A stretch of DNA of 42,843 bases from Candidatus Oscillochloris fontis. GTDB taxonomy: Bacteria; Chloroflexota; Chloroflexia; Chloroflexales; Chloroflexaceae. The stretch spans positions 1 to 42,843 of the forward strand of contig NZ_RYFD01000039.1 in assembly GCF_004138135.1 (NCBI RefSeq). Reading direction: 5' to 3'. Within the stretch, counting starts at the first letter, position 1, and each line of letters begins with the position of its first letter. Both the position numbers and the translations under genes were made by a program. Positions 12,516 to 28,986 of the stretch are shown here, piece by piece. The notes under the pieces were generated by a model. It saw only the letters and a program-made list of their open reading frames with translations, did not search any database and was not told the origin of the DNA.

Positions 12516-12821
12516 ACAAGAAAATAAGCGACGTTGAACAGGATGAGTAGGCGTCATACGGTGCTCAGCGAGTCGGTGGATGGTGGAAGACCGACGCATA
12601 CGACGACGACGAATGGCCCTGGGAGTCGCAGGATGAACCGACCGGCAACGCCGGATCGCAGTAGTCTTCGCCGGAGACGCCACCGTTATCAGGGCGCTGG
12701 GTGTGAAGCGGCTTGGCCCGACAGCACCCGTTGAGTGTGTCGTTCCCGCGAGGGGCGGCAAACGAGAGTGGTACCACGAGTTTTCTCGCCTCTCGATCCA
12801 TACTGGATCGAGGGGTTTTTT
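12516..12821 (+). promoter_or_regulatory. T-box leader (tRNA-Trp riboswitch) with terminator
   Basis: A transcriptional T-box. Stem I begins with a K-turn-like GATGAGTAG (about 12542-12550). Its distal part has the AGCGAGTCGG / GGATGGTGGAAG arrangement typical of the AG-bulge and distal loop. The specifier strand reads GAA-TGG-CCC with TGG at 12614-12616, the tryptophan codon. The T-box sequence AACGAGAGTGGTACCACGAG is at 12761-12780, containing the GTGGTACC core whose bases pair with the tRNA acceptor end. The antiterminator pairs CGAGA (12763-12767) with TCTCG (12784-12788). The competing terminator pairs 12789-12800 with 12804-12815 and ends in six T (12816-12821). Uncharged tRNA-Trp should stabilise the antiterminator and switch on trpB2. 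Confidence 0.9.
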
Positions 12822-25253: not shown

Positions 25254-25355
25254 CTGGCTGATGATGAGGAGGCTGCTCGTTCCGGCGGGTAGCTCCACTG
25301 AGATGCTGTGGCTCCAGGTGATGTTGCCCTTGGTGGTGCGTTAGGATTGATGTGG
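25254..25355. pseudogene. chimeric gene remnants: GH31-tail copy joined to a C25-tail copy
   Basis: 25254-25317 is a diverged direct copy (54 of 64 bases by my alignment) of 25449-25512 within the GH31 gene. On the minus strand it still reads WSHSISVELPAGTSSL, matching the GH31 C-terminal WSRSIPVEIPAGTSSL. Immediately next to it, 25317-25355 matches 36 of 39 bases of the C25 peptidase gene end (22951-22989), including codons for VMLPLVVR, the stop and the bases after it. The remainder of the gap (25073-25253) has a GC-rich hairpin CCCGCCCCCGCTGGGGGCGGG-like at about 25219-25239 and nothing else recognised. Confidence 0.65.
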
Positions 25356-28300
25356 CTGCTCCCATGTGACATGAGGAATGGGTTGATCGTGCTCATCCGC
25401 GATCATCACGTTCATGAACCAGAACCACGGGTCTTCGTCGGCGGGGTGCTGGCTGATGATGATGAGGCTGCTTGTACCGGCGGGGATCTCGACCGGGATG
25501 CTACGGCTCCAGTCGGGGTTGACCCGATACCTGGCGGCGGGGATGTGGTGTTCGATGGCGATCTCGGTTCCGTTTAGGTAGATCTGGGGTGGGTGCGGGG
25601 CGTGGTAGGCAATCCGTATTCGCTGAGCCTCGCGGATGCTGAGCCAGGTACGGGCATAGCCGTTCAGGGTGCTGTCGGTTGGATAGGTACGAGCGACTTC
25701 GGTGAAGGGTATTCTGAAGTGTTCGGTGAGGCTCTGGAATTCAGCTTGCTCTGGGTTGTGCTGAACTGTTTGCCAGTCCAGATCGTTGCTGCGCTTTAGG
25801 GCTTCGGCTAGGGTCAGGGGTTGTGTACTGGGCCGGACGCAGATCTGCCAGTGGCCAATGGTAGGAAAGAGCGGTTGCGCTTGGATCTGGTGTCGCAGTT
25901 CGTGTGCTCCCCACTGGAGTTGGAGTTCCAACGACCAGCAGAGGCTGTGGGTGGTTCCGTTCCAGGTGAAGGGACAGGAGAGGATGCGATCTTCCCCACT
26001 TGGCTCTAACGCTACAACCTCCTCGCGCACTCCGTCTGGCCCGATCATACGCCAGGTGACCACGCCATGCACGGGGCTACCGTCACCCGCTGCCGCGATG
26101 ACGAGGCTGCCTAGACTATGCACGGCATCCTCAGGGGTGGTGTGCTGGTAGAGGCGTGCCCACGGGCCTCCCAGCCGGGCGATGGCTCGGCTGCGCCCTG
26201 GTTCTGCTACGTAGAAGATCTGTTCGCTGTCGAGGCTGCTGGCTCCAATGAGCCGCTGCGCATGGTCTCTCCGTATGTGTTGATTGCGCCGCTCGCCAAG
26301 CAGGCTGGCGGGTTGGCCAAATTCAACCTGCACCATGACGCCTTGCTCACGAGGGCGCGGGGGTAGGCTACAGATGATGCGTTCGTCCAACGCATCGTAT
26401 ACCCAGTCATTCCAGACCACCCCATCTACCAGGATGGTGTCGGCGGGGAGGACGTATTCTAGGTGCAGATGATCGCGGCGTATACGGGGCAGATCGGGGC
26501 ATGTGCCTTCGCCGGGGCCAATTTCTATCTGCATCTGGCAGCCGTTGTGCGCCATCCGCATGCTGACGGGGGTCCATTCGTAGGCTCCGTCGCGGTAGGC
26601 TTCGCCTTCACCTGCATCGGCGTAGATGCGGGTGGCTCCGGCATGGCCGGGGAAGATGCTGAAGGTGAGGGTGTCGGCGGGTTGTTGGTGGCTCCGGAGG
26701 GCTGGTGGGGCGAGCGGGATGATGGCACCTGCAGGTACGAGTTGGGGGATGGTGTCGAGTTCGGCTTCGAGACGCACCCATGCGGGGCCGTGGAAGGTTT
26801 CGCCACTGTTGCGCTCGATCCATACGCCCGGTGGTACCCACACATCGGCTGGGGCAAGGCCACTCACTGGGTCGCTGGGATGGACGATGGGAGCCACAAG
26901 TATCTGGTCACCGAGCATGTATTGTTCGCGGGCGATGTAGGCGGCGGGTTCCTCAGGCCACGAGTAGTAGCATGGCCGACACGGGGCGAGGCCACGATCT
27001 GTGTGGATGCGGGCGAGAGTGTAGAGGTAGGGTAGCAGGGTGTAGCGGGTCTGAAAGGCGGTTCGTGCTGCGGCCAGGATTGCGGACGGGAAGGCCCAGG
27101 GGCGGCGTTCGGCCCACGAGGATTTGGTTGAGTGCAGGCGCAGAATAGGGCTGAGTGCGCCGACTTGAACCCAACGGGCATAGAGTTCTGGCTCGCAGGC
27201 GTCAAAGTGGGCACCAATGTCGTGGCTCCACCAGCCGTAGAGGACGTTAGCGGCGGTGGCGGTGAAGTAGGGCTGGAAGCGCAGGGCTTCCCAGGTGGCG
27301 AAGGTGTCGCCCGAAAAGCCGATGGGGTAGCGGTGGTTGCCTAGCCAGCCCCAGCGGCTGAAGGTGATCGGGCGTCGCCCCTCGCGCCGCTGCATGTCGC
27401 GGGTGTGGAGGTGGTTGAGCCAGGGGAGCGGGTCGAGTCCGGGGAGTTCGCACGTGCGCCCCTGTTGCCAGTCGAGCCACCAGAAATCTACGCCTTCGTC
27501 TTCTAATGGATGGTGCAGGTGTTCAAAGTAGGCCCGCACAAACGTTGGGTCGCTGATGCGGAAGGGGATGGGTTGGGCTGTGGCTGGATCGTGGCCGCAG
27601 GCCGCCGCAACCGCCGGGTATGCGGCTTCATGGGGATGCACACCATCGGCGGGGTGCAGGTTCAGGGTAACGCGCAGCCCTTGTTGGTGGAGCCACGCGA
27701 GGAACCCAGGTGGATCGGGGAAGAGATCGCGGTTCCAGGTGTAGCCCGTCCATCCGGGGAGATGCCAGTCCATGTCAATCACGACGGTATCGAGTGGGAT
27801 CTGGTGGCTGGTAAAATCTTCTACTAATGCCCGCAACTCTGGCTCGGTGTAGGCGTGGTAGCGCGACCACCAGGCACCCAATGCCCAGCGCGGGATCATG
27901 GGGACACGCCCACCAAACTGGGCATAGTCGGCAATTGCGGCGAGGTAGTTGTGGCCATACCCGAAGAAGTACCAGTCTTGCTGCTCGCCTGGGGCGGGCG
28001 GTTGCACCCAGCCACTCTGGGGGTCAAACCGTACACTGGCACTATCATCAACCAGGACCCACCCATCACGCGAGATGATGCCGGGTTCTAGTGCCGCAGC
28101 ACCGCGACACCCATCGAGGGTGCGGCGCGCCCCCCGCAGGTTGTGGATGTCGGGGGTGCCGGGGCGCCAGCAGATGCTCGCGCCCGCAACGATCAGGTGG
28201 ATCTCTAGGCTGGCAGGCTCGAAGCGCCCGCCACGGTAGAAGATGCGCAACGCCCCAGTGTCTATCATCAGTTCCTGACCCGCTTTTTCGTACCGAAAAG

Positions 28301-28493
28301 GCGGAGCTTTGGCGTAGCGGGAGGGGAAGGCGTAGCTGGGACGATCATCATGCTGGTCATCGGTTGCCCATTGTATGCGGATCAATCGTGGGGTTAGCAT
28401 GGTGAAGCGAGCATTCCCATAATTCACCACCGCCGCAGGATCAGGCATGGGAGTCCCATGAAGTCCGAGACGGGTGATCGTTGGTTCGGGCAT
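25341..28493 (-). CDS. glycoside hydrolase family 31 (alpha-glucosidase/alpha-xylosidase type), large
   Basis: 1050 residues, no signal peptide, so probably cytoplasmic. An N-terminal beta-sandwich precedes a TIM barrel starting near RVPMIPRWALGAWWSRYHAY. The nucleophile is Asp341 in FWWLDWQQGR, in place of the common DMNE form. The acid/base is Asp396 in FSGDTFATWE. GWWSHDIGA and ILRLHSTKSSWAERRPW further mark GH31 substrate-binding loops. Beyond the usual proximal and distal beta domains (to about 760) lie roughly 290 extra residues containing LSIREAQRIRIAYHAP and a sugar-binding-like sandwich. It releases alpha-linked glucose or xylose; specificity is not readable. AGGAGG precedes the ATG at 28493 at ideal spacing. 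Its 3' end overlaps a stretch copied from the C25 gene end, so the last few codons may be replaced. Confidence 0.92.
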   Translation of the reverse strand: MPEPTITRLGLHGTPMPDPAAVVNYGNARFTMLTPRLIRIQWATDDQHDDRPSYAFPSRYAKAPPFRYEKAGQELMIDTGALRIFYRGGRFEPASLEIHLIVAGASICWRPGTPDIHNLRGARRTLDGCRGAAALEPGIISRDGWVLVDDSASVRFDPQSGWVQPPAPGEQQDWYFFGYGHNYLAAIADYAQFGGRVPMIPRWALGAWWSRYHAYTEPELRALVEDFTSHQIPLDTVVIDMDWHLPGWTGYTWNRDLFPDPPGFLAWLHQQGLRVTLNLHPADGVHPHEAAYPAVAAACGHDPATAQPIPFRISDPTFVRAYFEHLHHPLEDEGVDFWWLDWQQGRTCELPGLDPLPWLNHLHTRDMQRREGRRPITFSRWGWLGNHRYPIGFSGDTFATWEALRFQPYFTATAANVLYGWWSHDIGAHFDACEPELYARWVQVGALSPILRLHSTKSSWAERRPWAFPSAILAAARTAFQTRYTLLPYLYTLARIHTDRGLAPCRPCYYSWPEEPAAYIAREQYMLGDQILVAPIVHPSDPVSGLAPADVWVPPGVWIERNSGETFHGPAWVRLEAELDTIPQLVPAGAIIPLAPPALRSHQQPADTLTFSIFPGHAGATRIYADAGEGEAYRDGAYEWTPVSMRMAHNGCQMQIEIGPGEGTCPDLPRIRRDHLHLEYVLPADTILVDGVVWNDWVYDALDERIICSLPPRPREQGVMVQVEFGQPASLLGERRNQHIRRDHAQRLIGASSLDSEQIFYVAEPGRSRAIARLGGPWARLYQHTTPEDAVHSLGSLVIAAAGDGSPVHGVVTWRMIGPDGVREEVVALEPSGEDRILSCPFTWNGTTHSLCWSLELQLQWGAHELRHQIQAQPLFPTIGHWQICVRPSTQPLTLAEALKRSNDLDWQTVQHNPEQAEFQSLTEHFRIPFTEVARTYPTDSTLNGYARTWLSIREAQRIRIAYHAPHPPQIYLNGTEIAIEHHIPAARYRVNPDWSRSIPVEIPAGTSSLIIISQHPADEDPWFWFMNVMIADEHDQPIPHVTWEQPHQS

Positions 28494-28648
28494 GGGTCTC
28501 CTCCTATAGCAATCCTATCGGGGGTGTACACCTGTCCCCCTCAGCAGCCGCAACAGAACGCAAAGAACACACATACTATGTAAACACCCATGAATAGTTA
28601 CCCTATGCTATCATACTCCGTAGACAGATCGCCATTTGAGGGTATTGA

Positions 28649-28962
28649 GTAACTATTCACACTTAGACATGGCTTGTAACCACTTGACAATTCGCCGCCG
28701 AACGGCCCTCACCCCCAGCCCCTCTCCCGTGGGCTTCGCCCACAGGAGAGGGGGGCACATGACTGAGGTATCCCGGAGCGTATCCCCCCCTCGCCTGTTC
28801 GCGCAGCGAACGGGAGAGGGGGGCTAGGGGGGTGAGGGCCATAACGCACGTGTCAAGTTGATACGCGCCTTCTGAAACCATGTCTTAGGGTAAAAAACCT
28901 TCGCGCCTTCGCGTCTTCGCGTGAACAATAACGTTTCTCTTACCCCAAGTGTGAACAGTTAC
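28649..28962. mobile_element. nested transposon-like element (MITE) with 16-bp inverted ends and 8-bp target duplication
   Basis: The ends are GTAACTATTCACACTT (28649-28664) and its complement at 28947-28962, with one mismatch. The octamer GGTATTGA lies directly outside both (28641-28648 and 28963-28970), as a target-site duplication would. GTAA-starting ends and an 8-bp duplication are features of IS66-type elements. There is no transposase inside. Further pairs are nested within: AGACATGG (28666-28673, complement at about 28878-28885), CTTGACA (28683-28689 with 28851-28857), and a GGCCCTCACCCCC palindrome (28704-28730 with 28810-28840) that itself holds two triloop hairpins. A GACGC-type repeat (28894-28922) is inserted in the right half. 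The 155 bases upstream (28494-28648) contain only another end fragment, TGAATAGTTAC at 28591-28601. Confidence 0.8.
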
Positions 28963-28986
28963 GGTATTGAACAGCAAGGAACGATC

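What the first reader, a model, noticed from the sequence alone, without database searches (positions are those of the whole stretch)
28641..28970. Russian-doll element with clean 8-bp target duplication
GGTATTGA flanks 16-bp inverted ends, GTAACTATTCACACTT and its complement. Inside are at least three further inverted pairs and an inserted GACGC repeat, so several small elements landed within one another. GTAA ends and an 8-bp duplication suggest mobilisation by an IS66-type transposase in trans. The insertion is 24 bases from the metallophosphoesterase start.
Basis: partly seen in the sequence, partly recalled or inferred. Interest (0 to 1): 0.72.

Follow-up and report, generated by a model that had tools for sequence, protein, structure and literature searches.

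The report
Nested IS66-type mini-transposon before phosphoesterase gene
A small gene-less jumping element of the IS66 kind, itself split by a second small element, sits in the leader of an ordinary gene, and this genome holds many such copies, some inside one another.

Summary
Window 28649-28962 has 16-bp inverted ends (15 of 16 paired) inside a perfect 8-bp repeat, GGTATTGA; 200 shuffles gave no such structure. Leaving out an inner 219-bp element (28666-28884; TTA repeats) gives exactly 92 bp, identical at 88 of 92 positions to an undivided copy elsewhere in the genome. The end motif occurs 303 times in this genome against 3 for the reversed control. Of 73 undivided end pairs, 46 have at least 7 of 8 matching flank bases, against about 1% after shuffling.

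The IS66 reading holds: a family-level relative carries a 1439-bp element with nearly the same ends, encoding a 454-aa IS66 transposase. None was found in the window's own draft genome, so the family looks stranded.

Two details fail: the GACGC repeat is the element's own core, and the G+C-rich palindrome is not shown to be a separate insertion. Unexpected: copies that sit inside other copies lie mostly at one octamer, mostly in the same orientation. Verdict: new member of a known kind.

The parts
28641..28648 (.). left copy of the 8-bp target duplication GGTATTGA
   Evidence: 8-bp duplications are the rule in the family
28963..28970 (.). right copy of the 8-bp target duplication GGTATTGA
28649..28664 (+). 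left terminal inverted repeat of outer element A
   Evidence: pair I6; 15 of 16 identical to the end of the IS66 element in G010
28947..28962 (-). right terminal inverted repeat of outer element A; read inwards, the right end matches the IS66 end at 27 of 30
28649..28962 (.). outer element A, a MITE with IS66-type ends: 92 bp when the inner element and one TTA are left out (28649-28665 plus 28888-28962)
   Evidence: 88 of 92 identical to the undivided copy at G000:C120:25210-25301, which has its own AATACTAG duplication
28663..28665 (.). TTA, left 3-bp duplication of the inner element
   Evidence: read
28885..28887 (.). TTA, right 3-bp duplication of the inner element
   Evidence: read
28666..28884 (.). 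inner element B, 219 bp, short ends GACATGG / CCATGTC, carrying palindrome C
   Evidence: relatives over nearly the whole length at G000:C56 (96%), C128 (90%), C125 (88%) with different flanks
28704..28840 (.). G+C-rich double-hairpin palindrome C inside B (13-bp perfect outer arms; inner hairpins 28719-28753 and 28785-28823)
   Evidence: matches limited to about query 54-205 occur elsewhere in the genome
28606..28615 (+). possible extended -10 promoter element TGCTATCATA of the phosphoesterase gene, upstream of the insertion
   Evidence: TGCTATCATA or TGCTATGATA found upstream of 7 of 14 orthologues, in four of them 50-55 bases from the start codon
28987..30339 (+). metallophosphoesterase gene (450 aa) in front of which the nest lies
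   Evidence: PF00149, E 2.4e-6
25341..28493 (-). divergent glycoside hydrolase family 31 gene on the other side of the nest
   Evidence: PF01055, E 1.4e-63

Best explanation
A 92-bp non-autonomous element (MITE A) was inserted by an IS66-type transposase, acting in trans, into GGTATTGA in the leader between the promoter and the start of a metallophosphoesterase gene, duplicating 8 bp. Later a second, different 219-bp element (B, which carries a G+C-rich double hairpin) inserted into A just inside its left end, duplicating TTA. Shown by sequence: the two layers, their duplications, an undivided 92-bp copy, the large family, and an IS66 element with nearly the same ends in a relative. Inferred: that this transposase lineage moved A, the order A then B, the promoter, and that the transcript now carries about 322 extra leader bases that can fold into a very stable hairpin.
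For: End motif 153+150 times in the own genome against 2+1 for the reversed control. Of 73 undivided end pairs read, 37 have 8 of 8 and 9 have 7 of 8 matching flank bases; shuffled flanks give 0.8% and 0.4%. Undivided 92-bp copy, 88 of 92 identical. Transposase relatives with like ends: 85% in L188; 47% in L189 with GTTGAATC on both sides; a broken copy in G018 (L138) with GGTCTGAT on both sides. Motif-to-start distance without the nest, 381-322 = 59, against 50, 55, 51 and 54 in four orthologues. B at different flanks with TTA/TTA (window, C56, C125).
Against: No IS66 transposase in the own genome by Pfam profile (E up to 1e-3) or by tblastn (E up to 1e-10). The G010 element itself has no matching 8-bp flank (TCGCTCGA / CGACAAGG), nor has L188 (AGATGCGG / CCCTGCCC). 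27 of 73 undivided end pairs have 6 or fewer matching flank bases. No empty site with a single GGTATTGA was found, since the orthologues' leaders are too diverged. Three of the seven orthologues with the promoter-like motif have longer distances (115, 171, 240/325) and seven lack the motif. B's flanks are TGA/TAA in C128, and no transposase for B was found.
Confidence: 0.9

Rival explanations
1. The structure is a single long inverted-repeat regulatory leader that evolved in place, not a mobile nest.
For: The 346-nt stretch folds far better than shuffles (-157.4 kcal/mol, z -6.9) and lies between a promoter-like motif and a gene; one weak promoter-like site lies inside it (28664-28691; 1 found, 0.4 expected).
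Against: The parts occur separately, with their own flanks, elsewhere in the genome; none of 14 orthologues has the paired ends; no terminator-like site was found.
Confidence: 0.03
2. Three or more independent insertions: A, then B, then palindrome C inside B.
For: C-like palindromes occur without B ends elsewhere; C74, C43 and C22 carry B's left part plus C but not B's right end, and C121 the reverse.
Against: The four B copies read with both ends on one contig (window, C56, C128, C125) all contain C at the same place; no C-less B copy and no duplication around C were seen, though no search was made for a C-less B as such beyond the end pattern.
Confidence: 0.3
3. A was moved by a transposase of another family with 8-bp duplications, not IS66.
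For: No IS66 transposase in the own genome.
Against: End plus subterminal identity with an IS66 element (28 of 28 and 21 of 24); related IS66 elements have like ends. Other transposase families were not searched for in the own genome.
Confidence: 0.06

Closest known systems
IS66 family, ISBst12 group (single ORF), for example ISDge4 of Deinococcus geothermalis (PMC12898284, passages seen)
   Same: ISDge4 has ends GTGACTACTCAGCA and GTAACTGCTCAGCA, an 8-bp repeat and one 449-aa transposase; the G010 partner has GTAACTGTTCACAC-type ends and one 454-aa transposase. Two IS66 elements of Paracoccus are listed with 8 in what I take to be the repeat column (PMC3281130, passages seen).
   Different: The window element has no gene at all and only shares the ends.
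Bacterial MITEs such as MITEPsy1 (PMC3189936, passages seen)
   Same: About 100 bp, terminal inverted repeats, no gene, thought to be moved in trans by a parental IS.
   Different: MITEPsy1 is marked 'IS5?' in that paper's table, linked to ISPsy2, and gives 4-nt duplications; A has IS66-type ends, 8-bp duplications, about 150 copies and self-nesting.
REP / BIME-like palindromes (recalled family names, not tested)
   Same: Palindrome C is a multi-copy double hairpin.
   Different: C is about 137 bp and rides inside B here.

Membership tests
MITE with IS66-type (ISBst12 group) ends | terminal inverted repeats starting GTAA | tested here: met
MITE with IS66-type (ISBst12 group) ends | 8-bp target duplication | tested here: met
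   window 8 of 8; family 46 of 73 with at least 7 of 8
MITE with IS66-type (ISBst12 group) ends | an autonomous element with the same ends and an IS66 transposase | tested here: met
   G010:C286:19493-20931, PF03050, in a relative of the same family
MITE with IS66-type (ISBst12 group) ends | that transposase in the same genome | tested here: not met
   PF03050: 0 matches in the own genome, control genomes ring in 4 of 14; tblastn: 0 matches in G000 at E up to 1e-10; draft of 139 contigs. Not a requirement for a stranded MITE
MITE with IS66-type (ISBst12 group) ends | short, gene-less, many copies | tested here: met
   mostly 135-136 bp, also 92 bp; 303 ends
MITE with IS66-type (ISBst12 group) ends | transposition observed | not testable with these tools
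   needs a mobility assay
ISBst12 group (partner element in G010) | single transposase gene, no tnpA/tnpB | tested here: inconclusive
   the 1439-bp element is nearly filled by one 454-aa frame; TnpA and TnpB profiles were not run
known family for inner element B | a transposase-bearing element with GACATGG ends and 3-bp duplication | tested here: inconclusive
   7 pattern matches in the own genome; of the 4 not already known as B copies, 2 (L219, L220) look like B pieces and none showed a second B end in the expected orientation nearby; their reading frames were not examined

The most novel reading that the evidence does not exclude
The IS66-type MITE family has a built-in landing pad: new copies insert by preference into one octamer (positions 110-117 of the 136-bp form, often ending CTAG) just inside the right end of an existing copy, mostly in the same orientation, so that the family grows Russian dolls and tandem arrays rather than hitting genes. 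This would be end-directed self-targeting by an IS66 transposase.
Probability: 0.55. Interest if true: 0.6.

Novelty: new member of a known kind. Interest (0 to 1): 0.42.

Why it matters
It links a seemingly stranded MITE family of about 150 copies to an IS66 lineage through a full element in a relative, and gives a clean two-layer history at one locus. The self-nesting at a fixed octamer, if confirmed, would make target choice by IS66 transposases testable, and suggests one way in which a MITE burst could spare genes.

Tried and rejected
Plasmid records: no match to the nest. A pair of ends about 1.2 kb apart at G000:C57:14890-16066 looked like a full element; it turned out to be two separate short MITEs, and the frames between them, read by eye, did not look like a transposase (no profile was run on them). 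Lone ends at C8:10601, C56:112013 and C51:56217 showed no partner in the stretches fetched. TGAATAGTTAC at 28591-28601 looked like a further end; only 11 bases match and no partner was seen, so it was left open. Terminator-like sites in the leader: none. Rfam over the whole window at gathering threshold: only a T-box leader at 12525-12796. Literature: seven searches (I saw listings with titles and starts of abstracts, and passages of three papers) showed no title or abstract start on an IS66-derived MITE in Chloroflexota or on self-nesting of such MITEs. The library is an open-access subset and most listed papers were not opened, for example the Cardinium MITE paper PMC9769881, so this is weak evidence of absence.

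Rows dropped and bias: in the duplication count, ends were allowed three substitutions, only pairs 40-700 bp apart with 20 bases of flank were kept, and 55 of 128 pairs with other ends inside were set aside. Only about a third of the end places were listed with coordinates, so the copies read are a part of the family. The nest count is affected by selection: several loci were fetched because they looked nested, and looked for CTAG junctions. In less selected sets, 1 of 11 (loci) and 5 of 26 (loci) copies with at least 7 of 8 duplication lie in another copy. Against the same-orientation rule: L043 (= L168) is opposite, and L237, at the same octamer by eye, is opposite too but was not counted because its right side is lost. 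The C9 nest (target GTGTGAAC in the host's own end) was not caught by the script. The composites at C15, C46 and C52 share subtypes by eye and may be one nest that moved as a unit.

Full report
What is there. The window segment 28641-28970 reads GGTATTGA - GTAACTATTCACACTT ... AAGTGTGAACAGTTAC - GGTATTGA. The inverted ends pair at 15 of 16 positions and the direct repeats match at 8 of 8. A scan for this combination found 1 case in the 42.8-kb window and 0 in 200 triplet-block shuffles.

The outer element. The end motif GTAACTRTTCACAC, one mismatch allowed, occurs 153 times forward and 150 times reverse in the 4.46-Mb genome; the same motif read backwards occurs 2 and 1 times (100 places listed). 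Of 73 undivided pairs of ends read, 46 are 135-136 bp long; shorter forms include 92, 91 and 84 bp. 37 of the 73 have a perfect 8-bp duplication and 9 have 7 of 8; shuffling the right flanks gives 0.8% and 0.4%; 27 have 6 or fewer. These are MITEs.

The inner element. A BLAST of the whole nest against the own genome gives matches to the right part (about query 244-323) and to the middle (about 22-250) (94 rows, of which many are the palindrome alone). The middle has relatives at C56 (query 23-249, 96%), C128 (22-245, 90%) and C125 (23-250, 88%), with different flanks. Their limits are GACATGG ... CCATGTC or close to it, with TTA on both sides in the window, C56 and C125, and TGA/TAA in C128. 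Taking out 28666-28884 and one TTA leaves exactly 92 bp, identical at 88 of 92 positions to the undivided copy at C120:25210-25301, which has its own duplication AATACTAG. This is a paralogous empty site for B. Two contig ends, C26 and C17, look like the halves of another B insertion in A-like DNA with TTT on both sides, and at C121:65216 (L220) a B-like piece lies between A-like sequences; I could not prove that C26 and C17 are one locus.

The palindrome. The double hairpin at 28704-28840 is inside the four B copies read with both ends, and also occurs without B's ends. I saw no B without it and no duplication around it, so a third insertion is possible but not shown.

The mover. Pfam IS66 (PF03050) finds nothing in the own genome, while it rings in 4 of 14 control genomes, 3 over the cut-off; tblastn with an IS66 transposase finds nothing there at E up to 1e-10. 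Two of the five congeners, G003 and G005, hold distant IS66 transposases (29% and 31% identity), with no convincing pair of like ends near them. Among 61 genomes (own plus 60 relatives) 35 have at least one match to the end motif; it is abundant in some members of the family and order (for example G018 57+60, G036 27+27, G054 19+20) but at 0 or 1 in the five congeners, and counts of a few are no better than the reversed control. In G010, a pair of ends 1439 bp apart encloses one 454-aa IS66 transposase (PF03050, E 8.2e-48). Relatives of the transposase have related ends: 85% identical in Chloroflexi bacterium REEB485 (GTACGTGTTCACAC; no matching flanks), 47% in an uncultured bacterium (GTAAGAGTTCAGAC, with GTTGAATC on both sides), and a broken copy in G018 with GGTCTGAT on both sides. 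The other five loci gave no convincing pair of like ends with matching flanks. The G010 copy itself has no matching 8-bp flank. In print, ISDge4 of the ISBst12 group has ends GTGACTACTCAGCA and GTAACTGCTCAGCA, a 449-aa transposase and an 8-bp repeat (PMC12898284, passages seen), which fits this lineage.

The site. The nest lies between a divergent glycoside hydrolase family 31 gene and a metallophosphoesterase gene. TGCTATCATA (28606-28615) looks like an extended -10 element; that motif or TGCTATGATA occurs upstream of 7 of 14 orthologues (L117-L130), and in four of them it lies 50, 55, 51 and 54 bases from the start codon. In the window it is 381 bases away, that is 59 without the nest and one duplication. 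The other three have longer distances (115, 171, and 325/240 for two motifs), and seven lack it. None of the 14 has paired element ends in up to 600 bases upstream; two have a weak single match, probably chance. The likely reading is that the promoter was kept and the leader stretched. The stretch 28641-28986 as RNA is predicted to fold at -157.4 kcal/mol against a shuffled mean of -115.2 (z -6.9). No terminator-like site was found, and one weak promoter-like site lies inside the nest at 28664-28691, against 0.4 expected. An effect on expression is a guess.

Self-nesting. Russian dolls are frequent among the copies read. Over all own-genome loci read, 13 of 53 copies with at least 7 of 8 duplication lie within another A copy; 10 of the 13 are at one octamer, positions 110-117 of the 136-bp form, and 12 of 13 have the host's orientation. 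Several loci were chosen because they looked nested, and looked for CTAG junctions, so these numbers are inflated; in less selected sets it is 1 of 11 and 5 of 26, with 4 of those 6 at the same octamer. Without the CTAG search it is 10 nests among 49 copies, 7 of them at the octamer and 9 of 10 in the host's orientation. One more opposite case at the octamer, L237, was seen by eye and not counted. The octamers differ in letters with their hosts (GAGGCTAG, GATGTTAG, GATGCGAG, GAGACTAG), which argues against one nest copied many times, though C15, C46 and C52 may share an origin. The window's nest is a different case: B, not A, is the insert.

Verdict. The finding is real and its main reading is right; it is a new member of a known kind (a MITE with IS66-type ends, interrupted by a second small element). 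The self-targeting pattern is the part that could interest a specialist.

Noticed in passing
own genome, for example L036 1501-1763, L060 684-963, L195 300-900, L224, L227, L241: Copies of the MITE sit in other copies mostly at one octamer just inside the right end, mostly in the same orientation, in places stacked more than two deep.
   Followed up: partly
window 28591-28601: TGAATAGTTAC, an 11-base match to the element end just upstream of the promoter-like motif, perhaps a remnant of another copy or chance.
   Followed up: partly
window 12525-12796: T-box leader (RF00230, 94.1 bits, gathering score 93) on the + strand.
   Followed up: no
G000:C15:100206-100615: CCATGTCTAA recurs five times at exactly 100-base steps, so a 100-bp tandem repeat may lie there.
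   Followed up: no
L117 and L118, leaders of the orthologous phosphoesterase gene: By eye, two congeners have other palindromic sequences in the same leader, so this leader may attract or tolerate small repeats.
   Followed up: no
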